NCBI GenBank assembly: GCA_028386065.3
Contig: JAKUCV010007782.1
Span: forward strand, 62,001-126,000
Reading direction: 5' to 3'
Length of the DNA: 64,000 nucleotides
From: Turnera subulata
Taxonomy: Eukaryota; Streptophyta; Magnoliopsida; Malpighiales; Passifloraceae
This document shows positions 1,685-59,212 of this stretch, in pieces (positions within the stretch are counted from its first letter, which is position 1; each line of letters begins with the position of its first letter). The position numbers and the translations under genes are program-made. Under the pieces are notes generated by a model that saw nothing but the letters and a program-made list of their open reading frames with translations, was not told the DNA's origin and did not search any database.

Positions 1685-1697
1685 TTCTACCCTCCTC
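1685..1697 (-). other. Polypurine tract of copy A
   Basis: On minus it reads GAGGAGGGTAGAA directly before the LTR start TGTAACAG. The matching site in copy B (13675-13690) and E2 (54448-54460) is less pure (GGTGG-type) but occupies the same place. It fixes the retroelement strand as minus. Confidence 0.65.
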
Positions 1698-1789
1698 AAA
1701 AAGAATTTCGTCCCCAAAATTCCGTCTTATCCGTGGGTCCTACCACATTAAGCTTCTGGTATACTCTACCAGGTGTCCAAACTCAACGC

Positions 1790-1836
1790 GAGATACCGCT
1801 TATACCCTTAAGCGACATCTCCTCCGCTTATAAAAA
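1790..1836 (+). promoter_or_regulatory. TATA box and upstream dyad of cargo ORF A (copy A)
   Basis: TATAAAAA at 1829-1836 lies about 35 bp upstream of the ORF A start codon. Just before it is a nested dyad: outer arms GAGAT (1790-1794) and ATCTC (1817-1821), inner arms CGCTTA (1797-1802) and TAAGCG (1809-1814). The same arrangement is kept in copy B (TATAAATA 13818-13825) and E2 (TATAAATA 54592-54599). Confidence 0.6.
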
Positions 1837-1870
1837 CCGAACCTCATAACTGAGACACTCACTCTCAGCC

Positions 1871-2248
1871 ATGGACTCTCCACTAAGAACAAGAACCACC
1901 TCAGACTCCGAGGATAACAGCTACATCAGTGGTACTGCTTTCCCGACAAGCTTCGATGAAGAACCTCCCAAGAAGCGGTTCAAGGCAAACACCATCAGTC
2001 TGAAGGAAGAAGTGGTGGTCTCCCCAAGACAGCGAAAGAGGCGTGCTGGCAAAGAAGCCGATGATCGGAAGGGCAAAGCAACGGCTGAAAGAAACACTCC
2101 ACTGCAGACACTATCGCAGCTGAACGTCTCACTGAAGAAGGTCAGCTCAGCGGTGATGCAGATAGAACTGGCGTGTGCGGAAATCTTTCCCCACGTCAAA
2201 AACATCCAAAAACTTGTAAAAGACCTTGAGAAGCAAGTAACTCCTTAG
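1871..2248 (+). CDS. Cargo ORF A, basic coiled-coil-like protein (antisense to the retroelement)
   Basis: A 125-residue ORF in the internal region of copy A, on the strand opposite to the retroelement. I do not recognise a family. Visible features are a Ser/Asp-rich N-terminus, a nuclear-localisation-like PKKRFK at residues 33-38 and a second basic cluster PRQRKRR at 52-58. A C-terminal amphipathic segment (about 78-123) with regularly spaced Leu/Ile/Val ends in LVKDLEKQ. The C-terminal half is the best conserved part across the three copies (QIELACAE, FPH, LVKDLEKQV), and many differences are V/I/L/M exchanges. It has its own TATA box, and AATAAATAAA follows the stop at about 2280. This is the only intact copy. 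The start is the first ATG after the TATA and is shared by all copies. Inference: a small nuclear protein. Confidence 0.6.
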   Translation: MDSPLRTRTTSDSEDNSYISGTAFPTSFDEEPPKKRFKANTISLKEEVVVSPRQRKRRAGKEADDRKGKATAERNTPLQTLSQLNVSLKKVSSAVMQIELACAEIFPHVKNIQKLVKDLEKQVTP

Positions 2249-3075
2249 AGTACTTCTTCTCCGTTGTAAAACCGTTATGAATAAATAAAACAAGTTTTCC
2301 TTTTTAAAACAAAACTCTTGTTAAATTATGAAAACTCACGCTAACAGAAAGATAAAAACATCCCAAAGCAGAACAAAAACCAACAAGAAGGATATAAAAT
2401 CAAACATAAAGAAATTAAAAATAAAACTCGTTTAACAAAACCAAAACATGAAGAAGTTAAACCAAAAACATATTTTCATGATCAGCGCTCTAGATCGGTC
2501 GTAAACATCCTCGATCCCAAAAAACGTGACATGCACAGCTAACGGTGACGTCTGTTTCCCTCGTGAAAAAGACGTCCGTTAACTCGCAAGGCGATGATCA
2601 CGAGAACGTCCTGTTTCCTCGAAAGAAAAGATATCCACCTATCCACAAGCCAAAAATGCTGTCAAGTCTCGTATCCCTCCTTGATGTCCGAACAGGTGTA
2701 AGCTTGTCGCACATGCACTCTACTCGAGGTTTGGTCCCATCAGTCTAGCCACAACGGTCACGGATGCATGTGATAAAAGATGCAGGAAAAATTCATAAAA
2801 ATAATAAAGCAAGGTAGCCAAGGCGATAGAAAATCATGAGATGGGAAGGGCTAAAAAACACTTGCGTTAGTAGCCCCAAAACACACAAAGTGATGAAGTA
2901 ATAAATGAGGCAATGGAAAAATTTTCAAAAAGCAACACCTTGAAGAATGAAAATGATTTGGAGCTTTGTGAAGGGAATCTGCTTTTCCCATCACCGAAAA
3001 ATCCTTTAGACTTTCCCGGGGATAGGTGGGGTCTAAACTTGAAAAACAAAACAGTAATCACGCTCCCCATAAGAG

Positions 3076-3083
3076 TATAAAAG
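3076..3083 (+). promoter_or_regulatory. TATA box of cargo ORF B (copy A)
   Basis: TATAAAAG in the context AAGAGTATAAAAGACGGAG, about 115 bp upstream of the ORF B start. The same box is kept at 14965-14972 (copy B) and 55728-55735 (E2). It indicates that ORF B has its own promoter, separate from ORF A and opposed to the LTR promoter. Confidence 0.6.
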
Positions 3084-3196
3084 ACGGAGTGGCGAGATGC
3101 AAATCATCAAAAGCATTTTGAAAGAGAGTTTTGTATCACGTTTAGAAAAATAAATACAAAACACGTCCAGAAAAGACACAAAATCGCCAAGTCAGA

Positions 3197-3541
3197 ATGC
3201 CTGCTCCATCATTCGTCTTCTTCGTCGAAGGTGCCTCCCTAGGCAGAAGAAACCGGCTGGCCTACAGCATGATCAACGAACGTCCAGAGGAGCTACCGAA
3301 TGAGCTCGGCAGGATGCCCCGTCTGGTCTTCGTCGACGAACTTTACTCCTCCAGGTTTTTCGTCACTCCCATGGAAGAGACGTTCTTCCTAGAGGACCAA
3401 GGCACCCTGAGGACCTCCTTCTACGGCTCGGCTAATTCCGTCATGTTTTTCATTTCTGAAAGACTTCAGGAATTCAACCTAGAGCCCACTTGCCATTTCC
3501 TGGACCAAGGTACCTACTACAAGCTCTCGATGACTGCCTAG
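3197..3541 (+). CDS. Cargo ORF B, N-terminal part (copy A, ends at amber codon)
   Basis: A 114-residue ORF equal to the N-terminal half of the 227-residue ORF B seen intact at 55842-56525. It contains the unrecognised conserved domain (VFFVEGA, GRRNRLAYSM, PNELGRMPRLVFVDELYSSRFF, with several aromatic pairs). It ends at a TAG where E2 has CAG (Gln115). Copy B has the same TAG. The reading frame resumes with ATG four bases later (TAGAGCATG), so this copy may behave as two separate ORFs. Whether the TAG is a disabling mutation or a functional boundary cannot be told from this window. Confidence 0.55.
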   Translation: MPAPSFVFFVEGASLGRRNRLAYSMINERPEELPNELGRMPRLVFVDELYSSRFFVTPMEETFFLEDQGTLRTSFYGSANSVMFFISERLQEFNLEPTCHFLDQGTYYKLSMTA

Positions 3542-3544
3542 AGC

Positions 3545-3880
3545 ATGCCCAGAGTGACTCGATTACCCGCAACTTGGCCAAAGGCCCGACTTCTGGTGTG
3601 GAACTACAGAGGAATCGGTAGGTGTTTCCAGGAGTTCTCGCATACCCTGAGGGACCTGAAGAACCAGTACAAGCCCAACATGGTTCTTCTCACGGAGACC
3701 CAGTGGCAACCTGAAGACGATCACGGCGTCATCCCACTCCGGTTCCCTCCAGCAAACCGGTTCGAGCTTCCTGGCCAGAACAACGCGAGCGGCATGTGGT
3801 TCTCGTGGAATGACAACATCAGGGTCAACATCAACAATGACACCAATAGCTTTAGGGTCAACGTTGTTCCGAGAAGATGA
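3545..3880 (+). CDS. Cargo ORF B, C-terminal EEP-like part (copy A)
   Basis: A 111-residue ORF in the same frame as the preceding ORF. It starts at the ATG immediately after the shared TAG. It carries the segment resembling the start of endonuclease/exonuclease/phosphatase domains of plant LINEs: LLVWNYRGIG, then LRDLKNQYKPNMVLLTETQ. The family's conserved N (in WN) and E (in ET) are present, but only about 90 residues of a normal domain of over 200 residues, so catalysis is unlikely. The downstream AT-rich stretch has TGTAAT-type poly(A) signals. Confidence 0.55.
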   Translation: MPRVTRLPATWPKARLLVWNYRGIGRCFQEFSHTLRDLKNQYKPNMVLLTETQWQPEDDHGVIPLRFPPANRFELPGQNNASGMWFSWNDNIRVNINNDTNSFRVNVVPRR

Positions 3881-4130
3881 ATGTTTTTTTTTACAATATA
3901 ATGTAATTTTAATGTTTGTAATATTAATATTAGTGACATTAATAATATTAATATTTTCGCTTATTTATGGCATTAATTACCTCTTATGTGTTTGTTCTGT
4001 GGCAAGTTGGCGTCCCTCGACTGGAACCATCATGTACTAACTAAATGATATAAAATAATAAACAAATGGAGCGAACTATGCAAACGAGAACAACAAACAC
4101 ACAAGGACTACCTAACAAGACCTAACGCCC

Positions 4131-4142
4131 GCTCCGCTACCA
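4131..4142 (-). other. Primer-binding-site-like sequence of copy A
   Basis: On minus it reads TGGTAGCGGAGC, close to the tRNA-iMet-complementary TGGTATCAGAGC used by many plant LTR elements. It lies four bases from the LTR terminus. Identical sites are at 16018-16029 (copy B) and 56818-56829 (E2). Confidence 0.65.
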
Positions 4143-5471
4143 AAAATGAAATGCCCCGACCCGTATTTACCAGTCTCAGTAAACACGTGCCGGAACTGTA
4201 CAACAGTAAATATATCACGAAACACAGCCCAATGGCCCAAAGATAATATCAATGTATAAATCAAAGAAACCGGCCCAACGGCCCAATGTAATCAAAATCA
4301 CCATAAGAAATCTGGCCCATCGGCCCATTGACAAACACACGTCACCCAAACCCGGGGACCCAAAACACAGCACAACCGGCCCAATGGCCCAACAATAGCA
4401 ATAAACAGCACATCGGAAGACTTAATAACTCACAAAGACACTGTGTGCGACACTAATGCAAACTATGGATCCAAGTCCTGTCCAAGGGATAACGCCGCAG
4501 CCTGTCTGGAATGCATCATACCTGAACTATAACAGCCCGGGTAAAATTTGGATTTTTACCGGGACTGTAAAAGTCTTTCTACAGTGATTTACCGAAAGAA
4601 TTAATCTTGGGTAATTAATTCAAGGTAAATCGGGCGTCGTTTTTTGTAACCGAGGCTTTTCCCGTGCTCGAGATTTTTTCGTGGATTTTTCGGGCCTAAG
4701 TCGGTATTTTTTGGGTCCCGGAATCCTCAGAAAAATCACACCAGAAAATAACTAAGGGGGTATCGGTTATTTTCTGGTCCGGTCTGGACACGACTGCGTG
4801 ATTGAGTCACGCAGCCGCCTCTTATCTGTGCTGCCCGTGACAACCCTGTATAGCCTATGATTCTTTTCTTTTTCCCGTGCTTACCCTACTTCACTCCGCA
4901 CTCTGCAAACACAAACACAAAAACTCAAGCAAAACCAGAAAAAAAAAAAAGGAAATGAACAACAAAACATAAGCAACACCACACACCACCATTACCGAGC
5001 CACCCGAGCGCGCCACCATTCCTCCGCGCCGCCTCCCTCTCCTTCTTCCTTTCCTTTCTCCCTCGCCCGCCAGCGTACCGCCCCTGCAGCTTTCGTCGCC
5101 GACACGACCAGCGAGACAACCCACCAAAGCCACGACGAGCCTCTTCTTCCTCTCCTTTCTCCTCTCCGGCGACACCTCCACCGCGCCGTCTGAGTTCTCC
5201 ACGAACCGCTGCCACCGCCATCGCTTCGTCGTCTTGCTCGTGTCACCACCCTCACGTGACACCACCTGCACCCAAGCAACACCACCGAGCCGCCTCCTCT
5301 TCTACCGACCGTCGTGTGTAGCAGCCACCAGCACCGACGACGCCACCGACAGCAACCACCCACAGCAGCGTCTTCACCGCCGTCCTCAAGTCTCCAGACC
5401 CGAACTGCAGCCGACCCTGCCTCGACACACGCCTCGCCGTGCCCAGCCGCCTGCAACCCGCCGTTGCCAAG

Positions 5472-8012: not shown

Positions 8013-8190
8013 TGGCACGGACAAGGAGTAGACCCCAAGCACACTCTCCCCCAGCGCCTAACAATAATAATTGGTACAGACAGGGAGCAGACCCCAAGCA
8101 CATTCTCCCCTAGCGCCTAAAAATAATAATTGGTACAGACAGGGAGCAGACACCAAACACACTCTCCCCCAGCACCATAAAATAAAAGAC
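8013..8190. repeat. Tandem repeat, three units of about 59 bp
   Basis: Three imperfect units start near 8013, 8073 and 8132. Each holds GGTACAGACAGGGAGCAGAC and a CTCCCCYAGCGCC core. The repeat is found only in the copy A subfamily of LTRs. Confidence 0.75.
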
Positions 8191-11065: not shown

Positions 11066-13674
11066 TGAAACGCCCCGACCCGTATTTACCGTACACAATA
11101 AACACGTGTCGGAACTGTGACGACCCAACCATACCAAGCCCAGCTTACAGTGTATATAACAGAAATCCGGGCTCAACAGCCCAAAGTAAAAATAATAATA
11201 ATAACTTAACTGCCCAATGGCCCAACAATAATAAAAAAATGCACAGCGGAAGACTTAATAACTCACATAAACACTGTATGCGACATAGATGCAAACTATG
11301 GATCCGAGCCCTGTCCAAGGGATAACGCCGCAGCCTGTCTGGAATGCACCAATCCTGTACCACAAATAATCCATCCTACGGGATGAAAGCCCGCAGGTGA
11401 GGGGTGAGTCCGAAGTGCTCACCGACAAAGGAAAGACAATCAATATGCACACTATAAATACTCAAGGTCAAAAACGGGTAAAAACCATCAAAATACACCA
11501 GACCGAAAACAAATCAAAAGACTCAAACAAAATTCCAATTTCCAATTTTATCTTTCTGGGCCCCGTCACGGATAAGCAAGAGGTCAGACCTGATTATCAA
11601 CACATTCCGGGTGCCAGACCAAATCCAGAGAACCCAGGGATCGACATCCCAAAAATACAAACCCAGGGATAGACATCCAAAAAATAATCACGGGATAGAC
11701 ATCCCAAGCATAGACATGCTTATCACAAGAACCCTGGTCACGGCCACCACGAAACAGTCTTAAACCATCGAGTCGTACCACTACTTATCACGTGACAATT
11801 ATATTATCGTCATCAAAATCAAACCGTAGGGATCGACATCCCTAACCAAGATACCGGGATAGACATCCCTATCCAAAATACCAAGGATCGACATCCTTGT
11901 CACAATTTATTATTAATCCATTTTATACTTTGAACCAAAAGACAAAGAAAATCAACACGGGGGTAAACATCCCAAAAATACCAAATCAAAATACTGGGAT
12001 AATCATCCCGACAACAATCACAACAAATGCAATCATCAACAGTGCAATAAACATCAAGCACAATAACCAAGTAATACAGGCACATATTGAAGGAAATCCA
12101 TCCTCACCTTGGTCGATTACTCAACTCCGAAAACAGTGACCGATCCGACGCCGGCTCCTCGGGAAACTGCCCGATATCCAAACCTATACCACAAGACAAT
12201 ATATACACATAAATGCACATAATCGGTATACTATGATGCCAATATTGCGAAATATCTCATCCCGGTTCATATTCTTTATTTTCATCTTTTACCAAAAATA
12301 TTATACCGTACGTTTATCCGAATATAATTTCGGTACCATACTTTAATTAAAACTCTCTTTCAAAATATTTCCATAAAATAATTATAATTTTCCAAAATTA
12401 TAATCTCCTTAATTTTTCCAGAAAATAATAACGTATTTATAATTTTCAGAAAATATTTATTTAGTATTTATCTTTTTCTCAATATATAATGATAATATCT
12501 TTTTTTTCTAAATAAACATAATACTAATTTTCAAAATAAAATATAACTATCTTTAATTTTCAAAATCAAGTATATATACATATATATATTTCTTCCCAAT
12601 AGCATAATTTAGAACTAACTATATTTTCAAAATATAAATATATATATTTTTTTCCAAATTAAAAACAAGCTTATATGAATATATATATATATACATATAT
12701 TATTATTTTTTTTCTGGTTGAAACAGGTCACGACCCGGACCAGAAGAACGGGTCGCCCGGCCTCACCTTCGGGTTGCAGCGTCGTGACGGCGAGAGGAGG
12801 AAGGCGAACGCGAGGAAGGAACAGGCGCAGCAGCGGCGTCACTGGGACGACGCTGGGACGGCGGAAAGAGAGGCGCGGCGGCGCTGGAGCAGCGACGGGC
12901 GCGGAGGAGGACGGATCCGCGGGTTCTCCGCCTGGTCAACGCATCTAGCAGGAGCGTCCGGCGACAGAAACGAGAGGGGGAGGCGGGGTTCAGTCGGCGA
13001 TGGCGTGGAGAGGGCCATGGTGGCGGCGGTGTAGCTCGGGTCGGCGCCGATCGCTACCACATGAACAGTGGCAGGGAGGAGGCTCCGGGGTGACGACTGT
13101 TCACTCCGGGTTTTCTTCTTTTTTTTTCCGATTTTCTATTTTTTTTCTTTCCCTCTTTTTTTCTATTTTTTGTATTTATTTTTCTCCCTCTTCTTTTTTT
13201 TTTCTTTTCCCTCTTCTTTTTTTCTGATTTTTTCTTTTTTTCTCTCTTTTTTTCTTTTCTTTTTTTCTCTTTTCTTTTTTTTCTCTATTTTTCTTTTTCT
13301 TCTCCTCTTCCTCTCCTCTTCCTTTCTTCTCGTGCTTCCTTCTTTTTATAAACGTAAAACTACTGTTACACTTGTGATTCCTTAATAATGCAGCTTGCAT
13401 TATTAAGCGAGTCCAGTCCGGACCAGAAAATAACTGATACCCCCTTAGTTATTTTCCGTTGTGATTTTTTTCTGAAAATCCCGGGACCCGAAAAATACCA
13501 ACTTAGGCCCGAAAAATCCACGGAAAAATCACGAGCGCGGGAAAACTCTCGGTTTCGAAAAACGACGCTCGATTTACCTTGAATTAATTACCAAAGATTA
13601 ATTCAACAGTAAATCACGGTAAAAAGACTTTTACAGTCCCGGTAAAAATTAAAAATTTTACCCGGGCTGTTACA
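11066..13674 (-). repeat. Left LTR of copy B
   Basis: TGAAACGCCCCGACC to CCCGGGCTGTTACA. On minus (sense) it contains a 12-bp-arm palindrome (13381-13407), a TATA-like TATAAAAAG just downstream of it (about 13343-13352), a homopurine tract (plus 13110-13335 is pyrimidine), a GC-rich block with a candidate donor at 12766, an AT-rich block and the hairpin array 11636-12012. Confidence 0.94.
13110..13335. repeat. Homopyrimidine/homopurine tract in LTR
   Basis: About 225 bp of almost pure C/T on plus, mostly T runs separated by C. Counterparts are at 18085-18340, 46830-47130, 50398-50690, 53830-54115, 58595-58880 and 61355-61600. Copy A and the solo at 4528 lack a long version. Translations through it give F/S/L-rich or K/E/R-rich artefacts. 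Confidence 0.85.
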
Positions 13675-13859
13675 GTCTACCACCTTAAAAAGAATTTCGT
13701 CCCCGAAATTCCGTCTTATCTGTGGGTCCTACCACGATAAGCTTCTATTATACTCCACCAGGTGTCCAGAGTCAACATGAGATACCGCTTATACCCTTAA
13801 GCGACATCTCATCTGCTTATAAATACCAAACCTCATGACTGGCATACTCACTCACAGTC

Positions 13860-14235
13860 ATGGACTCTCCACTGAGATCAAGAACTACCTCAGACTCCGA
13901 GAACAACAGCTACATCGGCGGCACTGCCTTCCCGACAAGCTCCGATGAAGAACCTCCGAAGAAGCGGTTCAAAACCAACATCATCGGCCTGAAGGAACAC
14001 ATGGTCGACTCCAGCAGACGGTGAAAGAAACGTGCTCCCAAGAAAGCTGAGGATAAGAAGGGCAAGGCGGTAGCTGAGAGCAGCACTCCGCAGCAGCCAC
14101 TGACGCAGCTGAACGTCTCACTGAAGAAGATCAGCTCGGCGGTGTTGCAGATCGAACTGGCGTGCGCGGAGCTCTTCCCTCATATGAAAATGTCCAAAAG
14201 CTTGTAAAAGACTTAGAGAAGCATGTAACTCAATA
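13860..14235 (+). pseudogene. Degenerate cargo ORF A (copy B)
   Basis: Starts with the same MDSPLRSRTTS sequence after TATAAATA (13818-13825). It is stopped by TGA at about 14021, where copy A has CGA. A one-base loss near 14190 also shifts the frame through the conserved C-terminus. Between these lesions the QLNVSLKKISSAV segment is still readable. Confidence 0.75.
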
Positions 14236-15078
14236 GAGTACTCCTTCTCCAGTTGTAAAACTATTATGAACAAATAAAATAAGTTTTCTTTTTAAATCAA
14301 AATTCTTATGTTAAACGAAAAATTTAAACATCTCAAAGCAAAATAAAACTTAACAATAAAAATATAAAATAAAACATAAAGAAATCAAAAATAAAACTCG
14401 TTTAACAATATCAAAACAAAAAGAAATTAAAACAAAATATGTTTTCATGATCGGTGCTCGTATCGGACGAAAACACCCTCGAACCAAGAAACGTAACACG
14501 TGCAACTAACGATGACGTCTGTTTCCCTCGTGGAAGAGACGTCCGTTATCTCGCACGGTGATGATCACGAGAGCGTCCTGTGTCCCTCGAAAGAAACGTA
14601 CTCACTTGTCCACAAATTCCGCATGAGCCAAAAACGTCTGCCAGATCTCCTATCTCTCCACGATGTCCGAACAGCTGTAAACTTGTCGCACATGCGCTCT
14701 ACTCGAGGTGTGGCCCCATCAGTCCAGCCTCAACAGTGACGGATGTATGTGATAAAAGATGCAGAAAAATATAGTAAAACCATAAAAAGAAAGGACAAAG
14801 TAGCTAGAGCGAAAGAAAATCATAAGATGGAAAAAGGCTGAAAAACTCTGGCATTGCAGCCCGAAAAACGTATAAAGTAACGTAGCAATAAATTAAGCAA
14901 CGGCAAAATTTTCAAAAGGCAAAATCTTGAAAATCAAAAACTGTAATCACGCTCCCCATAAGAGTATAAAAGACGGAGCGGTGAGGTGTAAATCATCAAA
15001 AGCATTTTAAAGCAAACAAACGCTGAGGCAAAGAAACCTCAAAACTCAGAAAACAAAACACCAGCACGTCCCAACACA

Positions 15079-15762
15079 ATGCCTACTCCATCTTCCGTCT
15101 TCTTCGTCGAGGGTGCCAACCTAGGCAGAAGGAACCGACTGGCCAACAGCATGGTCAACGAGCTCCCGAAAGAGCTACCGAACGAGCTCGGCAGGATGCC
15201 GCGTCTGGTCTTCGTCGACGAACTCTACTCGTCCAGATTCTTCATCACTCCCATGGAAGAGGCGTTCTTCCTGGAGGACCATGGCACTCTGAGGACCTCG
15301 TACTACGGCTTGGCAAACTCCATCATGTTTTTCATCTCCGAAAGACTTTAGGAGTTCAACCTGGAGTCCACTTACCATACCCTGGAGCAAGGTACCTACT
15401 ACCAGCTCTCGATGACGGCCTAGAGCATGCCTAGAGTCACTTGTCTGCCCGCAACTTGGCCAAAGGCCCGACTACTGGTGTGGAACTGCAAAGGAGTCGC
15501 AAGGCGTTCCCAGGGGTTCTCGCGTACCCTGAGAGACCTGAAGAACCAATACAAACCAAACATGGTTCTTCTCACGGAGACCTAGTGGCAACCTGAAGAC
15601 GATCACGGTCTCATCCCACTCTGGTTCCCTGCAGCAAACCGGTTCGAGCTTCCTGGCCAGAACAACGCAGGCGGCATGTGGTTCTCGTGGAGTGACAGCA
15701 TCCAAGTCAACATCAACAACGACCCCAACAGCTTCAGGGTCAACGTCGTTCCAAAGCGATAA
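15079..15762 (+). pseudogene. Degenerate cargo ORF B (copy B)
   Basis: The length (228 codons including stop) equals the intact E2 copy with no indel that shifts frame, but three in-frame TAG codons fall at residues 91, 115 and 169. Where the other copies have CAG at these positions, all three are CAG to TAG changes. The WNCKGVA and KPNMVLLTET segments of the EEP-like part remain clear. A TATA box lies at 14965-14972. Confidence 0.78.
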
Positions 15763-16032
15763 ATGTATTTTCTAATTTTATAAAATATCAATGTAATATT
15801 TATCTTTGTAATGAAATTATCAGTATTAATAATAATATTTGTATTTTCGCTTATTTATGGCATCATTACCTCTTATGTGTATGTTCTGCGACAGTTGGCG
15901 TCCCTTGACTGGATCCATAATGCACTAACTAAAATGATATAAAATAATAACAAATGGAGCGAACTATGCAAACAAGGACAACAACACTCAAAGACTGCCC
16001 AACAAGACCTAACGCCCGCTCCGCTACCAAAA

Positions 16033-18660
16033 TGAAACGCCCCGACCCGTATTTAACGTACACAGTAAACACGTGCCGGAACTATGACGACCCAACCATA
16101 CCAAGCCCAGCATACAGTGTATATAACAGAAATCCAGGCTCAATAGCCCAAAGTAAAAACAATAATAATAACTTAACTGGCCCAATGGCCCAACAATAAT
16201 AAAACAATGCACAGCGGAAGACTTAATAACTCACATAAACACTGTATGCGACATAGATGCAAACTATGGATCCGAGCCCTGTCCAAGGGATAACGCCGCA
16301 GCCTGTCTGGAATGCACCAATCCTGTACCACAAATAATCCATCCTACGGGATGAAAGCCCGCAGGTGAGGGGTGAGTCCGAAGTGCTTACCGACGAAGGA
16401 AAGACAATTAATATGCACACTATAAATACTCAAGGTCAAAAACGGGTAAAAACCATCAAAATACACCAGATCGAAAACAAATCAAAAGACAAACAAAATT
16501 CCAATTTCCAGTTTTATCTTTCCGGGCCCCCGTCACGGATAAGCTAGAGGTCAGACCTGGTTATCAACACATTCTGGGTGCCAGACCAAATCCAGAGAAC
16601 CCAGGGATCGACATCCCAAAAATACAAACCCAGGGATAGACATCCCAAAAATAATCACGGGATAGACATCCCAAGCATAGACATGCTTATCACAAGAACC
16701 CAGGTCATGGCCACCACGAAACAGTCTTAAACCATCGAGTCGTACCACTACTTATCACGTGAAAATTATATTATCGTCATCAAAATCAAACCGTAGAGAT
16801 CGACATCCCTAACCAAGATACCGGGATAGACATCCCTATCCAAAATACCAAGGATCGACATCCTTGTCACAATTTATTATTAATCCATATTATACTTTGA
16901 ACCAAAAGACACAGAAAATCAACACGGGGATAAACATCCCAAAAATACCAAATCAAAATACTGGGATAATCATCCCGACAACAATCACAACAAATGCAAT
17001 CATCAACAGTGCAATAAACATCAAGCACAATAACCGAGTAATACAGGCATATATTGAAGGAAATCCATCCTCACCTTGGCCGATTACTCAACTCCGGAAA
17101 CAATGACCGGTCCGACGCCGGCTCCTCGGGAAACTGCCCGATATCCAAACCTATACCACAAGACAATATATACACATAAATGCACATAATCGGTATACTA
17201 TGATGCCAATATTGTGAAATATCCCATCCCGGTTCATATTCTTTATTTTCATCTTTTAGCGAAAATATTATACCGTACGTTTATCCGAATATAATTTCGG
17301 TACCATACTTTAATTAAAACTCTCTTTCAAAATATTTCCATAAAATAATTATAATTTTCCAAAATTATAATCTCCTTAATTTTTCCAGAAAATAATAACG
17401 TATTTATAATTTTCAGAAAATATTTATTTAGTATTTATCTTTTTCTCAATATATAATGATAATATCTTTTTTTTCTAAATAAACATAATACTAATTTTCA
17501 AAATAAAATATAACTATCTTTAATTTTCAAAATCAAGTATATATACATATATATATTTCTTCCCAATAGCATAATTTAGAACTAACTATATTTTCAAAAT
17601 ATAAATATATATATTTTTTTCCAAATTAAAAACAAGCTTATATGAATATATATATATATATATATATACATATATTATTATTTTTTTTCTGGTTGAAACA
17701 GGTCACGACCCGGACCAGAAGAACGGGTCGCCCGGCCTCACCTTCGGGTTGCAGCGTCGTGACGGCGAGAGGAGGAAGGCGAATGCGAGGAAGGAACAGG
17801 CGCAGCAGCGACGTCACTGGGACGACGCTGGGACGGCGGAAAGAGAGGCGCGGCGGCGCTGGAGCAGCGACGGGCGCGGAGGAGGACGGATCCGCGGGTT
17901 CTCCGCCGGGTCAACGCCTCTAGCAGGAGCGTCCGGCGGCGGAAACGAGCGGGGGAGGCAGGGTTCAGTCGACGATGGCGTGGCGAGGGCCATGGTGGCG
18001 GCGGTGTAGCTCGGGTCGGCGCCGATCGCTACCACATGAACAGTGGCAGGGAGGAGGCTCCGGGGTGATGACTGTTCACTCCGAGTTTTCTTCTTTTTTT
18101 CCGATTTTCTATTTTTTTCTTTCCCTCTTTTTTTTCTATTTTCTGTATTTATTTTTCTCCTTCTTCTTTTTTTTTCTTTCCCCTCTTCTTTTTTTTCTGA
18201 TTTTTCTTCTTTTTTTTCTTTTTCTTCTTTTTTTTCTTTTTCTTCTCTTTTTTTTTCTTTTCTTTTTTTCTCTTTTCTTTTTTTTCTCTCTTTTTCTTTT
18301 TCTTCTCCTCTTCCTCTCCTCTTCCTTTCTTCTCCTATAAACGTAAAACTACTGTTACACTTGTGATTCCTTAATAATGCCTGCATTATTAAGCGAGTCC
18401 AGTCCGGACCAGAAAATAACTGATACCCCCTTAGTTATTTTCCTGTGTAATTTTTTTCCGAAAATCCCGGGACCCGAAAAATACCAACTTAGGCCCGAAA
18501 AATCCACGGAAAAATCACGAGCGCGGGAAAACTCTCGGTTTCGAAAAACGACGCTCGATTTACCTTGAATTAATTACCCAAGATTAATTCAACAGTAAAT
18601 CACGGTAAAAAGACTTTTACAGTCCCGGTAAAAATCAAAAATTTTACCCGGGCTGTTACA
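16033..18660 (-). repeat. Right LTR of copy B
   Basis: Near-identical partner of 11066-13674, with scattered single-base differences and small length changes in TA and pyrimidine runs. Confidence 0.94.
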
Positions 18661-18812
18661 TTTCAAGTTTTTATTTTGGATTTAGAATTAAGATTTAAAG
18701 TTTAACGTTTAGGATTTGGGATTAACGTTAGGGATTTGAGTAACTCGAGTTACAAATTAATACTTTAAACTTTATTATTTTAGGATTTAAAATTTTATTA
18801 TTTTAGGATTTA
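18661..18812. mobile_element. Continuation of the foldback element interior
   Basis: Begins with the TTTCA duplication of copy B and consists of degenerate TTTAGGATTT/TTTAAAGTTT-type sequence, like 62900-63120. The right terminus is missing; a LINE fragment follows. Confidence 0.45.
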
Positions 18813-25424: not shown

Positions 25425-25596
25425 TGTCTCTGTTTAGTTTGTGTCTTGTTTTCAAACTTTAATGCTTAGTGGGTTTTTTTTCCTCCTTTTTGTGAGAGTG
25501 AAATGTGAAGTAAGTAAGTACAGAGAAGAGGAGAGGAGAAGAGAAAGACTGGAAAGTGTAGTGATGAAGATGGGGGAATGGAAGTGCGGGAGAGTG

Positions 25597-41360: not shown

Positions 41361-42287
41361 GGTTGTCTCGCTTGTTTCTAAAAAATGATCTTCAGCTCAA
41401 GAACATTGATGTTGAATCAATAACATCGATGTTTTGTAGCTACTGGTCTTCAAGTAATCTGGCCGAGAGCTTAGAACATCGATATTGAACTAAGAACATC
41501 GATGTTGAAATGCTACTGGAACTTCAAGTGATTTTGCCGAACGATTATAACATCGATGTTGTCTCAAGAACATCGATGTTATGCGAATTCTGGGAAGTTG
41601 GCAGAAGCTCTAGAACATCGATGTTTCACCTAGAACATCGATGTTTTCTGGAAATTCCAGAATTCCTCAAGAACACCAAGAACACAAGAAACTTGAATCG
41701 ATCTGAAGTGACTCTGAACCTTTCAGAATTGTTCTATTAGTGATTGAACAACTTTGTTTACTCTCAAATTACACTCAGAAATGAAAAGAATGGGTGTTTG
41801 ACAAGTCTCACAAGAATCTCACTCAAGAACAGAATATGAACATGAAGAACATTCATGCAATTTTCCAGAATTGAACTTGTTTCTCTAAACTCTCAATCCT
41901 TTTTTTCTTTGTAAGAGCAAGTCTGAAGCCTTGCAATGAAGTGAAAACCCCACGTTTTTACTTGAATTCACTTTGTTTCACTTATTTTCACTTGTATAAA
42001 AAACACATTACAATAGTCCTTATATAGACCAAAAGTGTAGTCCACTAACATAGAACTTAGTGCACTTAGCATGTCTGAAAAACACTGAATAAGCATGCTC
42101 ACACTAACCTAACAAGCATGTTACTAAACTTGACAATAAACAGAGAATATTACTAAAAGACAAGAACATAACTAACTAAAAGAAAACAATAACAATATGC
42201 AGATTTTTCCTTCTTCCAATGCTTGCAGACTTTCCTCTTCCAAGCTGTACTCTTCACAAACTCAAGACAAGCTGATCAATTCCAACA
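41361..42287 (-). repeat. LTR (element 5' side) of the DEK_C element
   Basis: Near-identical to 39596-40521. Its inner end reads ACAACC rather than ACAACA. Confidence 0.93.
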
Positions 42288-51986: not shown

Positions 51987-52143
51987 TGAAACGCCCCGAC
52001 CCGTATTTATTGTACACAGTAAACACGTGCCGGAACCATGACGACCCAACCAAATAAAAACCAGCATACAATGTAAACAACAGATAACTGGGCTCAACAG
52101 CCCATAATAGGAAAACATCACAAATATCAAAACCGGCCCAATG

Positions 52144-54447
52144 TGAAACGCCCCGACCCGTATTTACCGTACACAGTAAACACAAGCCGGAACTGTGACA
52201 ACCCAACCAAATAAACCCAAGCATACAGTGTGAACAATAATAACTCGGGCCCAACGGCCCAAAACAGTAAACAACATAAATAACATATCCGGCCCAATGG
52301 CCCAATTATAGCGAAAACATGCACAGCGGAAGACTTATGAAAAACCGTAGGGATCGACATCCCTAACCAAAATCCCGAGGATCGACATCCTCATCACAAT
52401 TCATTATTAATCCATTATTACTTAATCCAAAAGACACAGAAATTCGATACGGGGATAAACATCCCAAAAATACCAAACAAGCACCGGGATAGACATCCCG
52501 AGCCAAAACACAACAAAAGCACAACATCCAACAATGCAACAATACCAAACACAATAACCGAGTAATAAGGCACATATTGAAGGAAATCCATCCTCACCTT
52601 GGCCGATTACTCAACTTCGGAAACTATGACCGGTCCGACGCCGGCTCCTCGGGAAACTGCCCGATACAAAAAACCTATACCACAAGACAATATATACACT
52701 CACATAAATGCACATAATCGGTATGCTATGATGCCAACATTACGATATATACCCATCCCGGTTCTTATCTAATATTATTAACTTTCATCGAAAATAATTT
52801 ACCAAACGTATTTCCGAATATAATTTCGGTATCATACTTTAATTAAAACTCTTTCAAAATTTATTTTCATAAAATAACTATAATCTTCCAAAATATTAAT
52901 CTCCATAAATTTTCCAGAAAAATAATGAACTATTTATAATTTTCAGAAACTATTTATAGTATTTATCTTTTCTAAATATATATAGTAATAATATTTTCCA
53001 ACACAAAATATATTTAACTTTAATTTCCAAAATACATATTTATATACACATACCAAAATCATAATTTTCCAAACGAAATAATATACATATAAATTTCCAC
53101 AAATTAATTTCAAGATGTATATATATATATTTTTCCAATTAAAAATAGTTTTCCAAAACCAAACTTAATTATTTATCAAAGTAAATATATTTATATTTTA
53201 ATAAAAATTCCAGAATCAAATCGTCCATAATTTTCTAAAAATAACTATATAATTTTTTTCAAAATTAAATATCAGATTATGTTTAAATAAATATATATAA
53301 AAAAATTGTTTTTTTTTAATCAGGCTGGATCGTGAATAGTGCAAGCCCAGGCCCAGGGAAGAGCCCAACCCAGCCCTGTCTGGACCTGACCCACACACAT
53401 CCACGGCCCAACCCGGAAACCAGCCCAAACAACAGAAATAAGGGCGTGACCCGACCAGAAACATCTGGGTCGGACGCGGGTCGCGGGCTGCTCACCTCGG
53501 GTTGACGCAGCGGGACGGCGGCGGCGGCGCGAGGGAGGGAAGCAACCACACCAACAGCTGCGGCGGACGAAGGGCGGCGCGAGGGTGGCGGCAACTGGCC
53601 ACGGCGGCAGCTGCTGATGTTGCAGGTGGCGGGAGAAGCAGATCCGCCGGGTCTGTCGACGGGTCGTTGGCGCGTGACGGCGGCTCCGGCGACGGGACAA
53701 CTTGCGGGCGACGGGGGTGAGGTCGCGTCGGCCTTGCGAGCACGGTGGTGGTGTCGGTGCGGCGAGATGACGGCCCGAACTCTTACACGTGAACAGTGCA
53801 GGGGCTCGGTTGAAGGTGACGACACTGTTACTCTTTTTTTTCTTTTTTTTTCCTTTCTTTTTCCTATTTTTCCTCATTTTTCTTTCTATTTTTCTAATTT
53901 TCCGAAATTCTTTTTTTTCTTTTTCTTTCTTCTTTCTTTTTTTTTCATTACTTCTTCGTTTTTTTTTTCTGTTTTTCCTTTTTTTTTTCTATTTTTCTTA
54001 TTTTTTCTTTTTCTTTTCTCTTTTTTTTCTCTTTTCCTCTCCTTTTCTCTCTTTTTCTTTTTCTCTCTTTTTTTTCCTCCTCTCTTCCTCTCCTTCTCCA
54101 CCGGTCTGCTTCTTCTTATAAACTGAGAAAAATACTATTATACATGTGATGATCAAATAATACAATTCGTCCGTATTACAGGCGAATCCGATCCGGACCA
54201 GAAAATAACCGATACCTCCTTAGTTATTTTCCGGTGTGATTTTCCGAGAAATTCCGAAAACCGAAAAATACCAACTTAGTTCCGAAAAATTCACGGGAAA
54301 ATCACGAGCGCGGGAAAACCCTCGGTTTCGAAAGACAAGTCCCGATTTACCTTGAATTAATTACCCAAGATTAATTCAACAGTAAATCACGGTAAATAGA
54401 CTTTCACAGTCCGGTAAAAATCCAAAATTTTTACCCGGGCTGTTACA
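52144..54447 (-). repeat. Left LTR of E2
   Basis: Near-identical to the right LTR, except that near 52340 it jumps from AGACTTATGAAA directly to ACCGTAGGGATCG, lacking several hundred bases found in other family members. This may be a real deletion or an assembly collapse. Confidence 0.92.
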
Positions 54448-54591
54448 GACTACCCACCTTAAAAAGAATTTCGTCCCCGAAATTCCGTCTTATTCGTGGG
54501 TCCTACCACGATAAGCTTCTGGCACACTCTGTCAGGTATCCAACCTCAACATGAGATACCGCTTATACCCTTAAGCGACATCTCATCCGCT

Positions 54592-54599
54592 TATAAATA
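54592..54599 (+). promoter_or_regulatory. TATA box of cargo ORF A (E2)
   Basis: TATAAATA about 35 bp upstream of the ATG at 54634, with the same upstream dyad as in copy A. Confidence 0.55.
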
Positions 54600-54633
54600 C
54601 CAAATCTCATGACTGGCATACTCACACACAGTC

Positions 54634-55012
54634 ATGGACTCTCCACTAAGATCTCGAACAACCTCTGACTCCGAGAACAACAGCTACATCGGCGGCAAGG
54701 CTTTCCCAACAAGCTCCGATGAAGAACCTCCAAAGAAGCGGGTTCAAGACGAACATCATCGGCCTAAAGGAGCACATGGTCGTTTCCCCAAAACGACGGA
54801 AGAAGCGAGTCCCCAAGAAAGCTGAAGATCGCAAGGGCAAGGCGGTAGCTGAGAGCAGCACTCCGCATCAGAAGTTGACGCAACTGAACTTCTCTCTGAA
54901 GAAGATCAGCTCGGCGGTGGCGCAAATAGAACTAGCGTGTGCGGAACTGTTTCCGCACATGCAAAATGTCAAAAATCTTGTAAAAGATCTAGAGAAGCAA
55001 GTAGCTCCGTAG
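54634..55012 (+). pseudogene. Cargo ORF A with a one-base frameshift (E2)
   Basis: Starts MDSPLRSRTTSDSENNSYI. One extra G at about 54740 (AAGAAGCGGG versus AAGAAGCGG in copy A) shifts the frame. The remainder is open to 55012 in the second frame and keeps PKRRKKR, QIELACAELFPHM and LVKDLEKQV. This single lesion makes it close to functional. Confidence 0.75.
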
Positions 55013-55727
55013 AGTACTCTTCTCCTGTTGTAATCCTTTATGAAATAAATAAAATAAATTTCCTTTTAAAATCAAAACTCTCTTATGTTATAAAATCTTA
55101 TGTTAATTGGAAAAATAAAACATCTCAAAGTAAAATAAAAATCAACCATAAGAATATAAAATCAAATATAAGAAAATTAAAAACAAACTCGTTTAACAAA
55201 ATCAAAACAAAAAGAAATTAAAACAAAATATATTGTCATGAACGGTGCTCGTATCGGACGAAAACATCCACGAACCCAAGAAACGTAACGTACACTAACG
55301 GTGGCGTCCGTTTCGTTAACTCACACGGCGATGATCACGGGAGCGTCCTGTGTCCCTCGAAAGAAACGTTACCCACTTGTTCACAATTTCCGCATGAGCC
55401 AAAACATCTGTCTCGTCTCGTATCTCTCCACGATGTCCGAACAGCTGTGAACTTGTCGCACATGCACTCTACTCGAGGTGTGGTCCCGTCTGTCCAACCT
55501 CAACGGTCACGGATGCAAGTGGTGAAAGATGCAAGAAAATATAGTAAAACCATAAAAAGAAAAGACAGGGTAGCCAGAGCGAAAGAAATCATGAGTTAGG
55601 AAAAGCTTGAAAAACTCTGGCATGGGTCCGGAAAACGCGTAAATTGACAAAGCATTAAATACAACAACGGTAAAATTCAAAAAGCAAATCTTGAAAATCG
55701 AAAACAATAAACAAGCTCCCCATAGGT

Positions 55728-55735
55728 GTATAAAA
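55728..55735 (+). promoter_or_regulatory. TATA box of cargo ORF B (E2)
   Basis: TATAAAAG about 110 bp upstream of the ATG at 55842. Confidence 0.6.
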
Positions 55736-55841
55736 GAAGGAGCGGTGATGTGTAAATTATCAAAAGCATTAAAGCAACAAACCATTCTGAAAAACAAAAA
55801 CGCAACGCTCCAAAAACAGAATCACACACGTTCCAATCAAG

Positions 55842-56525
55842 ATGCCTGCTCCATCTTCAGTTTTCTTCGTCGAAGGTGCCAACCTTGGCAGGAGAAACCG
55901 TCTGGCGTACAGCATGGTCAACGAACGTGCTGAAGAGCTACCGAACGAGCTTGGCAGAATGCCACGCCTGGTCTTTGTCGACGAGCTCTACTCCTCAAGA
56001 TTCTTCGTCACTCCCATGGAGGAGGTGTTCTTCCTAGAGGACCATGGGACACTGAGGACTTCATACTACGGCTCAGCAAACTCCGTGATGTTCTTCATCT
56101 CGTATAGGCTTCAAGAGTTCAACCTGGAGTCCACTTGCCAAACTGTGGAGCAAGGCGCTTACTACCAGCTCTCAATGACAGCCCAGAGCATACCCAGAAT
56201 GACTCGGCTACCTCCAACCTGGCCAAAGGTACGGCTACTGGTGTGGAACTGCAGAGGAGTGGCTAGAGGTGCACAAGAATTCTCGCGTACTTTGAGGGAC
56301 TTGAAGAACCAGTACAAGCCGAACATGGTTCTTCTGACGGAGACACAGTGGCAACCACGGGACGATCACGGTCTGATTCCACTCCGATTCCCTCAAGCTA
56401 ACCGGTTCGAGATTCCTGGCCAGCGCGACAGAGGCGACATGTGGTTCTCGTGGAGCGACAGAGTCACGGTCAACGTCAACAGTGACGCAAACAGCTTCCG
56501 TGTCAACGTCGTTGCAAACCGTTAA
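55842..56525 (+). CDS. Cargo ORF B, intact: novel N-terminal domain plus EEP-like half
   Basis: 227 residues, antisense to the retroelement that carries it. Residues 1-120 form an unrecognised domain with conserved VFFVEGANLGRRNRLAYSM, PNELGRMPRLVFVDELYSSR and FFLEDHGTLRTSYYG. Residues 131-222 resemble the first strand-helix-strand part of endonuclease/exonuclease/phosphatase domains as in plant L1 ORF2: LLVWNCRGVA (WN at 135-136), LRDLKNQYKPNMVLLTETQ (E at 167), then DMWFSW. The rest of the nuclease, including the catalytic D and H motifs, is absent, so a non-enzymatic role or a relic is likely. It has its own TATA box; the stop is followed by T-rich, TGTAAT-containing sequence. Copies A and B have TAG for Gln115. 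The start is the first ATG in good context, conserved in all three copies. Confidence 0.68.
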   Translation: MPAPSSVFFVEGANLGRRNRLAYSMVNERAEELPNELGRMPRLVFVDELYSSRFFVTPMEEVFFLEDHGTLRTSYYGSANSVMFFISYRLQEFNLESTCQTVEQGAYYQLSMTAQSIPRMTRLPPTWPKVRLLVWNCRGVARGAQEFSRTLRDLKNQYKPNMVLLTETQWQPRDDHGLIPLRFPQANRFEIPGQRDRGDMWFSWSDRVTVNVNSDANSFRVNVVANR

Positions 56526-56832
56526 ATGTATTTTCTTATTTTTATAAAATATCAAAAATTAATGTAATATTTCCCTTTTATCAAAAATCAATGGAATATT
56601 TCTCTTGTATTTCCAATATTATCAGTATTAATAATATTCGTATTTTTGCATATTATGGCATCATTTACCTCATATGTGTATGTTCTGCGACAGCTGGCGT
56701 CCCTTGACTGGATCCATAATGCACTAACTAAAATGATAAAAAATAATAAATAAATGGAGCGAACTATGCAAACAGGATAACAAACACACAGAGACTGCCC
56801 AACAAGACCTAACGCCCGCTCCGCTACCAAAA

Positions 56833-59207
56833 TGAAACGCCCCGACCCGTATTTACCGTACACAGTAAACACAAGCCGGAACTGTGACAACCCAACCAAA
56901 TAAACCCAAGCATACAGTGTGAACAATAATAACTCGGGCCCAACGGCCCAAAACAGTAAACAACATAAATAACATATCCGGCCCAATGGCCCAATTATAG
57001 CGAAAACATGCACAGCGGAAGACTTATGAAACTCACATATACACTGTATGCATAAATGCAAACTATGGATCCAAGCCCGTCCAANNNNNNNNNNNNNTCA
57101 TTAAAACAAACCGTAGGGATCGACATCCCTAACCAAAATCCCGAGGATCGACATCCTCATCACAATTCATTATTAATCCATTATTACTTAATCCAAAAGA
57201 CACAGAAATTCGATACGGGGATAAACATCCCAAAAATACCAAACAAGCACCGGGATAGACATCCCGAGCCAAAACACAACAAAAGCACAACATCCAACAA
57301 CGCAACAACACCAAACACAATTACCGAGTAATAAGGCACATATTGAAGGAAATCCATCCTCACCTTGGCCGATTACTCAACTTCGGAAACTATGACCGGT
57401 CCGACGCCGGCTCCTCGGGAAACTGCCCGATACAAAAAACCTATACCACAAGACAATATATACACTCACATAAATGCACATAATCGGTATGCTATGATGC
57501 CAACATTACGATATATACCCATCCCGGTTCTTATCTGATATTATTAACTTTCATCGAAAATAATTTACCAAACGTATTTCCGAATATAATTTCGGTATCA
57601 TACTTTAATTAAAACTCTTTCAAAATTTATTTTCATAAAATAACTATAATCTTCCAAAATATTAATCTCCATAAATTTTCCAGAAAAATAATGAACTATT
57701 TATAATTTTCAGAAACTATTTATAGTATTTATCTTTTCTAAATATATATAGTAATAATATTTTCCAACACAAAATATATTTAACTTTAATTTCCAAAATA
57801 CATATTTATATACACATACCAAAATCATAATTTTCCAAACGAAATAATATACATATAAATTTCCACAAATTAATTTCAAGATATATATATATATTTTTCC
57901 AATTAAAAATAGTTTTCCAAAACCAAACTTAATTATTTATCAAAGTAAATATATTTATATTTTAATAAAAATTCCAGAATCAAATCGTCCATAATTTTCT
58001 AAAAATAACTATATAATTTTTTTCAAAATTAAATATCAGATTATGTTTAAATAAATATATATATAAAAATTGTGTATTTTTTAATCAGGCTGGATCGTGA
58101 ATAGTGCAAGCCCAGGCCCAGGGAAGAGCCCAACCCAGCCCTGTCTGGACCCGACCCACACACATCCACGGCCCAACCCGGAAACCAGCCCAAACAACAG
58201 AAATAAGGGCGCGACCCGACCAGAAACATCCGGGTCGGACGCGGGTCGCGGGCTGCTCACCTCGGGTTGACGCAGCGGGACGGCGGCGGCGGCGCGAGGG
58301 AGGGAAGCAACCACACCAAAAGCTGCGGCGGACGAAGGACGGCGCGAGGGTGGCGGCAACTGGCCATGGCGGCAGCTGCTGATGTTGCATGTGGCGGGAG
58401 AAGCAGATCCGCCGGGTCTGTCGACGGGTCGTTGGCGCGTGACGGCGGCTCCGGCGACGGGACGACTCGCGGGCGACGGGGATGAGGTCGCGTCGGCCTT
58501 GCGAGCACGGTGGTGGTGTCGGTGCGGCGAGATGACGGCCCGAACTCTTACACGTGAACAGTGCAGGGGCTCGGTTGAAGGTGACGACACTGTTACTCTT
58601 TTTTTTCTTTTTTTTCCTTTCTTTTTCCTATTTTTCCTCATTTTTCTTTCTATTTTTCTAATTTTCCAAAATTCTTTTTTTTTTCTTTTTCTTTCTTCTT
58701 TCTTTTTTTTTCATTACTTCTCTGTTTTTTTCTGTTTTTCCTTTTTTTCTATTTTTCTTATTTTTTTCTTTTTCTTTTTTCTTTTTTTTCTCTTTTCCTC
58801 TCCTTTTCTCTCTTTTTCTTTTTCTCTCTTTTTTTCCTCCTCTCTTCCTCTCCTTCTCCACCGGTCTGCTTCTTCTTATAAACTGAGAAAAATACTATTA
58901 TACATGTGATGATCAAATAATACAATTCGTCCGTATTACGGCCGAATCCGATCCGGACCAGAAAATAACCGATACCTCCTTAGTTATTTTCCGGTGTGAT
59001 TTTCCGAGAAATTCCGAAAACCGAAAAATACCAACTTAGTTCCGAAAAATTCACGGGAAAATCACGAGCGCGGGAAAACCCTCGGTTTCGAAAGACAACT
59101 CCCGATTTACCTTGAATTAATTACCCAAGATTAATTCAACAGTAAATCACGGTAAATAGACTTTTACAGTCCGGTAAAAATCCAAAATTTTTACCCGGGC
59201 TGTTACA
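56833..59207 (-). repeat. Right LTR of E2
   Basis: TGAAACGCCCCGACC to GGGCTGTTACA. It contains a 13-N gap at 57085-57097. Confidence 0.93.
57085..57097. other. Assembly gap, 13 N
   Basis: Lies in the right LTR of E2 at the same place where the solo LTR at 45259 has an N, after GGATCCAAGC. Family members have several hundred bases here. Confidence 0.99.
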
Positions 59208-59212
59208 CAATG

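What the first reader, a model, noticed from the sequence alone, without database searches (positions are those of the whole stretch)
54448..56832. LTR retroelement family whose only cargo is two antisense genes with their own promoters
Seen: three independent copies (A, B, E2) have LTRs, PBS-like and PPT-like sites on minus, and no gag-pol, but all share the same 2.4-kb interior with two plus-strand ORFs. Each ORF is preceded by a conserved TATA box and followed by AT-rich, poly(A)-like sequence. Known: some plant Ty3/Gypsy elements carry extra or antisense ORFs, usually next to gag-pol. Here the antisense genes are the entire cargo. Inference: the proteins may help a non-autonomous element (nuclear targeting, RNA binding, silencing evasion), or are captured host genes kept by selection.
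Basis: partly seen in the sequence, partly recalled or inferred. Interest (0 to 1): 0.85.

Follow-up and report, generated by a model that had tools for sequence, protein, structure and literature searches.

The report
Retroelement carrying only two antisense genes
A very abundant plant jumping element lacks the usual copying genes and instead carries two genes of its own, read backwards relative to the element, that selection has kept; half of one of them comes from an enzyme of a different kind of jumping element.

Summary
E2 is a complete LTR element on the minus strand (LTRs 52144-54447 and 56833-59207, duplication CAATG). Its 2.4-kb interior has no gag-pol, only two plus-strand, hence antisense, genes. 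An ORF B signature has 2,229 exact matches in the 519-Mb genome. dN/dS is 0.20 for ORF A (34 copies) and 0.15 for ORF B (24 copies), and stays low with transversions only or with copies chosen on non-coding sequence. TATA boxes precede ORF A in 22 of 28 copies and ORF B in 26 of 28. New here: about 90 C-terminal residues of ORF B descend from the N-terminal half of a LINE endonuclease, without its later catalytic motifs. PPT and LTR start resemble a chromovirus of the same genome (L054), a possible kind of helper. Antisense accessory genes are known in plant Gypsy elements (Grande, Retand), beside gag-pol. A high-copy family whose whole coding capacity is two conserved antisense genes, one part LINE-derived, is a new variant. 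Best mechanism, inferred: nuclear accessory proteins favouring their own family's amplification by borrowed enzymes. Expression was not tested.

The parts
52139..52143 (.). target-site duplication CAATG, left
52144..54447 (-). 3' LTR of E2 in the sense of the element
54448..54485 (-). PPT-like stretch, matching the PPT region of chromovirus L054
54592..54599 (+). TATA box of ORF A (TATAAATA, 42 nt before ATG; TATAAAW present in 22 of 28 copies, at exactly 42 nt in 20)
54634..55012 (+). ORF A region: basic, NLS-like, with a C-terminal helix; frameshifted in E2 (frames 54634-54825 and 54719-55012), intact in copy A at 1871-2248
55044..55049 (+). poly(A)-like AATAAA after ORF A
55729..55736 (+). 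TATA box of ORF B (TATAAAAG, 113 nt before ATG; TATAAAW in 26 of 28 copies at 104-132 nt although the flanks differ)
55842..56525 (+). ORF B, 227 aa, intact in E2
55842..56213 (+). ORF B N-terminal part (residues 1-124), no relative found
56235..56498 (+). ORF B residues 132-219, homologous to the N-terminal half of LINE endonuclease
56818..56829 (-). PBS-like site (minus strand TGGTAGCGGAGC), 3 nt from the 5' LTR
56833..59207 (-). 5' LTR of E2 in the sense of the element
59208..59212 (.). target-site duplication CAATG, right
11066..18660 (-). copy B: LTRs 11066-13674 and 16033-18660, interior 13675-16032, duplication TTTCA; both ORFs broken
1685..4146 (-). copy A interior: ORF A intact 1871-2248; ORF B 3197-3880 with TAG at codon 115

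Best explanation
A non-autonomous, probably chromovirus-derived LTR retrotransposon family. Shown: LTRs, PPT- and PBS-like sites and target duplications, but no gag-pol; two antisense genes, each with a conserved TATA box, kept by purifying selection across many insertions; ORF B joins an unknown N-terminal part to half of a LINE endonuclease. Inferred: RNA from the LTR is packaged, reverse transcribed and integrated by the enzymes of an autonomous chromovirus. Meanwhile Pol II reads the two small genes off the other strand. Protein A (basic stretches, long helix) acts in the nucleus, and protein B (a nuclease-derived fold without the later catalytic motifs) acts with it on nucleic acid or protein. 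Together they raise the output or survival of the family's own copies, as a retroviral accessory protein or a VANC-like anti-silencing factor would. Lineages with broken genes leave fewer descendants, which gives the low dN/dS.
For: Structure and duplications; chromovirus-like PPT and LTR start. dN/dS 0.20 and 0.15, codon bootstrap 0.146-0.267 and 0.114-0.187 (60 resamplings); the ratio is higher for close pairs (ORF A 0.35 in 63 pairs at dS 0.1-0.2 against 0.18 above 0.5; ORF B 0.21 in 9 pairs against 0.14), as expected when constraint acts on copying lineages and decay follows insertion. Transversions only: 0.17 and 0.15; copies chosen on non-coding sequence: 0.24 (18 copies) and 0.19 (14), their transversions 0.20 and 0.27. 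Genome-wide: opening the first two bases of the Asn161 codon adds 27 to 2,229 copies, while the neighbouring fourfold site carries C 38, A 31, G 29, T 2 in the 100 places listed (eye count). TATA boxes in 22 and 26 of 28 copies against 0.5 and 3.1 in base-shuffled sequence. Basic clusters conserved in ORF A; residues 77-123 one helix, pLDDT above 90 over residues 81-120 by block means. LINE origin of part of ORF B.
Against: No transcript, protein, localisation or mobility data. The helper was not identified: of three chromodomain loci only L054 matched, over 36 bp of PPT region (86%) and 102 bp of LTR start (73.5%), and no non-chromovirus Gypsy element was compared. Selection on a protein that should work in trans needs family specificity or cis action, and neither is shown; a search for VANC-like repeated short motifs gave no clear signal. 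The non-coding spacer is also slow (transversion distance 0.053 against 0.13-0.14 at fourfold sites), so part of the constraint may lie on DNA or RNA, or fourfold sites may mutate faster. The copies share descent, so the TATA counts are not independent trials.
Confidence: 0.6

Rival explanations
1. Deletion derivative: the two genes are the pol-to-3'LTR accessory region of an autonomous element that still exists (Grande/Retand style); these copies lost gag-pol, and selection acts mainly in the autonomous parent.
For: Known antisense accessory genes sit between pol and the 3' LTR (PMC7264820, PMC11963269). ORF A lies next to the PPT, as expected for such a remainder. Some Retand clusters lack coding domains. 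17 of 40 exact PBS/LTR junctions listed up to contig C329 lack the exact ORF B signature nearby (eye count); what most of them hold was not examined.
Against: In L054 the PPT match begins about 10 bp after the chromodomain match, leaving no room for ORF A or B. Of 20 copies chosen on spacer, all begin at the PPT end and 18 align through to the PBS end, L035 across an insertion; L039 is cut by another LTR and L047 stops short. The 18 interiors measured among them are 2.3-2.7 kb, too short for gag-pol. 23 of the 40 junctions above do have the exact ORF B signature 475-578 bp away in the right orientation.
Confidence: 0.22
2. The antisense transcription, not the proteins, is what matters: antisense RNA regulates the element through double-stranded RNA, and the reading frames are incidental.
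For: The spacer is conserved; the 2020 review considers this role for antisense transcripts.
Against: Frame-specific constraint: true-frame dN/dS 0.20/0.15; four of the five other frames 0.74-2.2, the fifth (0.31/0.25) being the reverse frame whose third positions fall on third positions of the true frame.
Confidence: 0.06
3. Captured host genes kept because they serve the plant; the copies are by-products of one or a few selected loci.
For: Low dN/dS by itself does not say who benefits.
Against: Constraint is seen between many separate insertions (repeats flanking the fetched interiors are about 87-98% alike). No relative in about 5.8 billion proteins, though how well plants are covered there is unknown to me. 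The only traced source is a LINE. A single-copy LTR-free relative in this genome was not specifically sought.
Confidence: 0.07

Closest known systems
Maize Grande gene23 (antisense accessory gene, nuclear protein, own promoter; Gomez-Orte 2013, seen only as cited in PMC7264820 and PMC11963269)
   Same: antisense gene in a Gypsy-type LTR element; own promoter (here only predicted); nuclear protein (here only NLS-like clusters)
   Different: Grande keeps gag-pol; here no gag-pol and two genes; sequence similarity not tested
Retand lineage with antisense TRP28 ORFs (PMC11963269, passages)
   Same: conserved antisense ORFs near the 3' LTR; some clusters non-autonomous
   Different: Retand is non-chromovirus and 97% of its clusters carry TRP28 (PF04195); none of 14 ORF B and 19 ORF A copies scanned hits PF04195, and PPT/LTR start here resemble a chromovirus
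Chromovirus LTR elements (L054; Tekay/Del-like label recalled)
   Same: PPT region and LTR start
   Different: no gag-pol here; no room for antisense genes after the chromodomain there
LARD/TRIM non-autonomous LTR elements (recalled)
   Same: LTRs without gag-pol, high copy number
   Different: those are thought not to code; here two constrained genes
Plant LINE ORF2 endonuclease (L049-L051)
   Same: ORF B residues 132-219, 29% identity to L049 by BLAST, 32% by profile
   Different: truncated before the GDFN and SDH motifs; joined to another domain; carried in an LTR element
VANDAL21 VANC anti-silencing protein (PMC5735166, abstract)
   Same: proposed working analogy: accessory protein of a plant transposon that favours its own family
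   Different: VANDAL is a DNA transposon (recalled); sequence similarity not tested; no target motif shown here

Membership tests
LTR retrotransposon | long direct repeats with TG..CA ends, 5-bp target duplication, PBS, PPT | tested here: met
   the PBS fits initiator tRNA-Met at 10 of 12 bases only as recalled, tRNA not identified
autonomous LTR retrotransposon | gag-pol | tested here: not met
   no ATG-started minus ORF over 94 aa in the three window interiors; the three of 70 aa or more have no Pfam hit over cut-off
chromovirus-derived element | PPT and LTR termini like a chromodomain-bearing element of the same genome | tested here: met
   PPT region 86% over 36 bp, LTR start 73.5% over 102 bp with L054; the other two chromodomain loci (L052, L053) did not match; no other Gypsy lineage compared
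chromovirus (as a member by its own pol) | reverse transcriptase phylogeny and chromodomain | not testable with these tools
   the element has no pol
Retand antisense-ORF elements | antisense ORF with TRP28 domain PF04195 | tested here: not met
   no PF04195 among the families listed for 14 ORF B and 19 ORF A copies at E up to 0.5
antisense accessory gene (aORF-3R) | conserved antisense coding gene with its own promoter | tested here: inconclusive
   coding constraint and TATA boxes found; transcription not testable
antisense accessory gene (aORF-3R) | lies between pol and 3' LTR | tested here: not met
   no pol; ORF A does lie next to the PPT
LINE endonuclease (ORF B C-terminal part) | sequence homology | tested here: met
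   0 of 2000 shuffles reach the score, z 17; hhalign 96%, E 2.7e-9 for one comparison with shallow profiles; PF03372 the only Pfam hit, in 8 of 14 copies, best E 0.0014, not E2 itself; whether over the cut-off is not shown in that table
LINE endonuclease (active enzyme) | complete catalytic set including GDFN and SDH motifs | tested here: not met
   present in L049, beyond the end of the part that ORF B shares; role of the motifs recalled

The most novel reading that the evidence does not exclude
A non-autonomous LTR family that lives by a two-protein antisense module assembled partly from a LINE endonuclease: borrowed gag-pol does the copying while the module, expressed from the opposite strand, secures preference for its own family (anti-silencing, nuclear import or target tethering). 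It would be a 'parasite with its own weapons', with the LINE-derived fold reused as a binding module rather than a nuclease.
Probability: 0.35. Interest if true: 0.8.

Novelty: new variant of a known kind. Interest (0 to 1): 0.63.

Why it matters
The role and origin of antisense accessory genes in plant retrotransposons are open. The 2020 review says that no clear similarities of these proteins to others had been described (while naming one SMC domain), and that lack of similarity to other transposons spoke against a transposon origin (PMC7264820). Here the genes stand alone, in more than two thousand copies, so selection on them can be measured without gag-pol, and half of one gene has a traceable transposon origin. 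If the proteins prove to favour their own family, a non-autonomous element would be shown to invest in its own success rather than only riding on a helper.

Tried and rejected
Fold search: the ORF B model was useless (mean pLDDT 31), so no fold search was run. PDB by sequence: no meaningful hit (best E 0.22 and 0.056). Protein database: a single-sequence and an alignment search of ORF B and an alignment search of ORF A gave nothing among 58, 923 and 4,936 candidates. Viral contigs: 20 pattern matches, none confirmed. LINE origin of the ORF B N-terminal part or of ORF A: not supported, scores within the shuffles against three endonucleases and two LINE upstream regions. Weak Pfam hits of ORF A (COG3_N, Sec3_CC and others, best E 0.0055; under cut-off in the two copies whose cut-offs were shown) are read as generic helix signal. 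VANC-like motif arrays: TTTTCCA occurs 5 times in part of the E2 LTR against 0.29 in shuffles, but the word was chosen after looking and the most frequent words of shuffles reach 6; not claimed. Branch-wise selection counts: not done, see below. Most of the 17 of 40 PBS/LTR junctions without the exact ORF B signature were not resolved; two of them (C235, C286) lie beside an ORF A or spacer match. Rows left out: from dN/dS, copies with under 90% of codons in the first matched stretch (5 of 39 for ORF A, 14 of 38 for ORF B); from the 28-copy interior alignment, L035 (insertion) and L039 (cut by another LTR).

Full report
What is there. E2 is a 7.1-kb LTR element lying on the minus strand: 3' LTR 52144-54447, interior 54448-56832, 5' LTR 56833-59207, with CAATG on both sides. 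Its LTRs are 98.2% identical over 2,110 bp and 100% over 199 bp. It sits inside an older solo LTR (51987-52143 and 59208-61946, flanked by CCAGC). Copy B (11066-18660) has its own duplication, TTTCA, and LTRs 95.2% alike. Copy A (interior 1685-4146) is in rearranged surroundings. The orientation rests on the PPT and LTR start: on the minus strand they match the sequence after the chromodomain of locus L054 (PPT region 86% over 36 bp, LTR 73.5% over 102 bp). L054 was one of three chromodomain loci fetched; the other two did not match. A PBS-like site lies 3 nt from the 5' LTR; it fits initiator tRNA-Met at 10 of 12 bases, the tRNA being recalled. That the host is a plant is inference from the elements and genes seen.

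No gag-pol. The ATG-started minus ORFs of 70 aa or more in the three interiors are 72, 92 and 94 aa, with no Pfam match over cut-off.

Copy number. The first-look candidate counts were 3,375 to 8,150. A 28-base pattern over a conserved stretch of ORF B has 1,133 + 1,096 exact matches, against one for the reversed control. The PBS/LTR junction has 1,655 + 1,629 matches with up to two mismatches, against none. Twenty copies were fetched with flanks, ranks 2-21 of 40 in a search with the non-coding spacer of copy A. All 20 begin at the PPT end and 18 align through to the PBS end (L035 across an insertion; L039 is cut by another LTR, L047 stops short); repeats flanking the interiors, where both lie in the fetched stretch, are about 87-98% alike. 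So activity was spread over time.

Selection. Both genes are constrained in the predicted frame. ORF A: 34 of 39 copies with a match were complete enough, dN/dS 0.20 (bootstrap 0.146-0.267). ORF B: 24 of 38, 0.15 (0.114-0.187). Codon positions 1, 2, 3 differ by 0.139, 0.090, 0.255 in ORF A and 0.103, 0.062, 0.261 in ORF B; four of five other frames give 0.74-2.2, the fifth 0.31 and 0.25 because its third positions coincide with the true ones. Close pairs show higher ratios than distant ones. Methylation-driven C-to-T change does not explain it: transversions alone give 0.17 and 0.15. Nor does choosing copies by their proteins: the copies chosen on spacer give 0.24 (18 copies) and 0.19 (14 copies), transversions 0.20 and 0.27. 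Both parts of ORF B are constrained (0.12 for residues 1-124, 0.18 for 125-219). Genome-wide, freeing the first two bases of the Asn161 codon raises the count from 2,229 to 2,256, while the fourfold site next to it shows C 38, A 31, G 29, T 2 among the 100 listed places (eye count). One result against a simple protein-only reading: the spacer between the genes also evolves slowly, transversion distance 0.053 against 0.13-0.14 at fourfold sites in 28 copies, and 0.065 against 0.15 in 8 copies not chosen on spacer. The non-coding interior may be functional too, or fourfold sites mutate faster.

Promoters. TATAAAW lies upstream of ORF A in 22 of 28 copies, in 20 of them exactly 42 nt before the ATG; 0.5 copies expected from base shuffles. 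For ORF B it is 26 of 28 at 104-132 nt, 3.1 expected. The copies share descent, so these are measures of conservation, not independent trials. The sequence around the ORF B TATA box comes in at least two forms that differ on both sides, with the TATA box kept in place. AATAAA or AATAAT follows ORF A in 27 of 28 and ORF B in 25 of 28, in AT-rich sequence and without a control, so this is weak evidence.

The proteins. ORF A (about 125 aa): conserved basic clusters like nuclear signals, N-terminal part of low confidence in the model, residues 77-123 one helix. Its weak Pfam hits are unrelated helix-type families. ORF B (227 aa): residues 132-219 align with the first ~90 residues of three endonucleases of the same genome, taken from the PF03372 list for their long open frames (1,297-1,383 aa) and not for likeness to ORF B; I call them LINE from these features, their reverse transcriptase part was not fetched. 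BLAST gives 45, 35 and 26 bits with L049, L051 and L050, phmmer 30, 31 and 21. Shuffling the sequence 2,000 times never reached the score (z 17), while residues 1-124 and ORF A scored like their shuffles; profile comparison gives 96% and E 2.7e-9; PF03372 is the only Pfam family hit, in 8 of 14 copies, best E 0.0014, and not in E2 itself. The piece keeps the WNCRG and TE motifs but stops before the GDFN and SDH motifs seen in L049, so cleavage is unlikely (the role of these motifs is recalled). Residues 1-124 and ORF A match nothing: not LINE upstream regions, and nothing in about 5.8 billion proteins, where plant coverage is unknown to me. The ORF B model has mean pLDDT 31 and was not used further.

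How it works. The copying is most likely done by enzymes of a chromovirus, inferred from the shared PPT region and LTR start. The two proteins are most likely nuclear accessory factors expressed from the opposite strand. To stay under selection in a non-autonomous element they must favour copies of their own family, for instance by acting on family-specific DNA as VANC proteins do (abstract of PMC5735166), or by acting near their own template. I found no clear target-motif array. Each functional step is inference.

Comparison. Of PMC7264820 I read the first of three parts and passages; of PMC11963269, passages. Antisense accessory ORFs in plant Gypsy elements are described between pol and 3' LTR; Grande's is nuclear and has its own promoter; Retand's carry TRP28; some Retand clusters are non-autonomous. 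I saw no description of a gag-pol-free family whose coding content is two antisense genes, nor of a LINE endonuclease piece in one, in the titles and abstract starts listed by searches; subscription papers (Gomez-Orte 2013, Steinbauerova 2011) were seen only as citations. Hence: new variant of a known kind.

Noticed in passing
window 51987-52143 and 59208-61946: E2 is nested in an older, related solo LTR with its own 5-bp duplication CCAGC.
   Followed up: yes
window 48111-51023: Another related solo LTR, flanked by ACATC on both sides.
   Followed up: partly
window 39597-40521 and 41362-42287: 926-bp direct repeats, 98.5% alike, with a 272-aa minus ORF carrying a DEK C-terminal domain (PF08766, E 3e-10) between them: a recent duplication or a gene between LTR-like repeats.
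   Followed up: partly
window 3539-3541 and 15421-15423, ORF B codon 115: Copies A and B share a TAG at codon 115, with an ATG two codons on that could restart the LINE-derived half; the other 22 of 24 nearly full copies lack this stop. A few of the 150 ORF B matches also hold one TAG, place not seen.
   Followed up: partly
L029-L048, about 100-130 nt before ORF B: At least two different sequence contexts around the same TATA box, suggesting promoter exchange between subfamilies; some copies also carry a long T/C-rich stretch just upstream.
   Followed up: partly
window 55013-55700: Non-coding spacer between the two genes changes more slowly than fourfold sites of the genes; reason unknown.
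   Followed up: partly
window 18807-19592: Retroelement fragment with a zf-RVT domain (PF13966) next to copy B.
   Followed up: no
window 24492-25433: Patatin-like phospholipase gene on minus (PF01734).
   Followed up: no
window 57085-57097: 13-base run of N inside the 5' LTR of E2.
   Followed up: no
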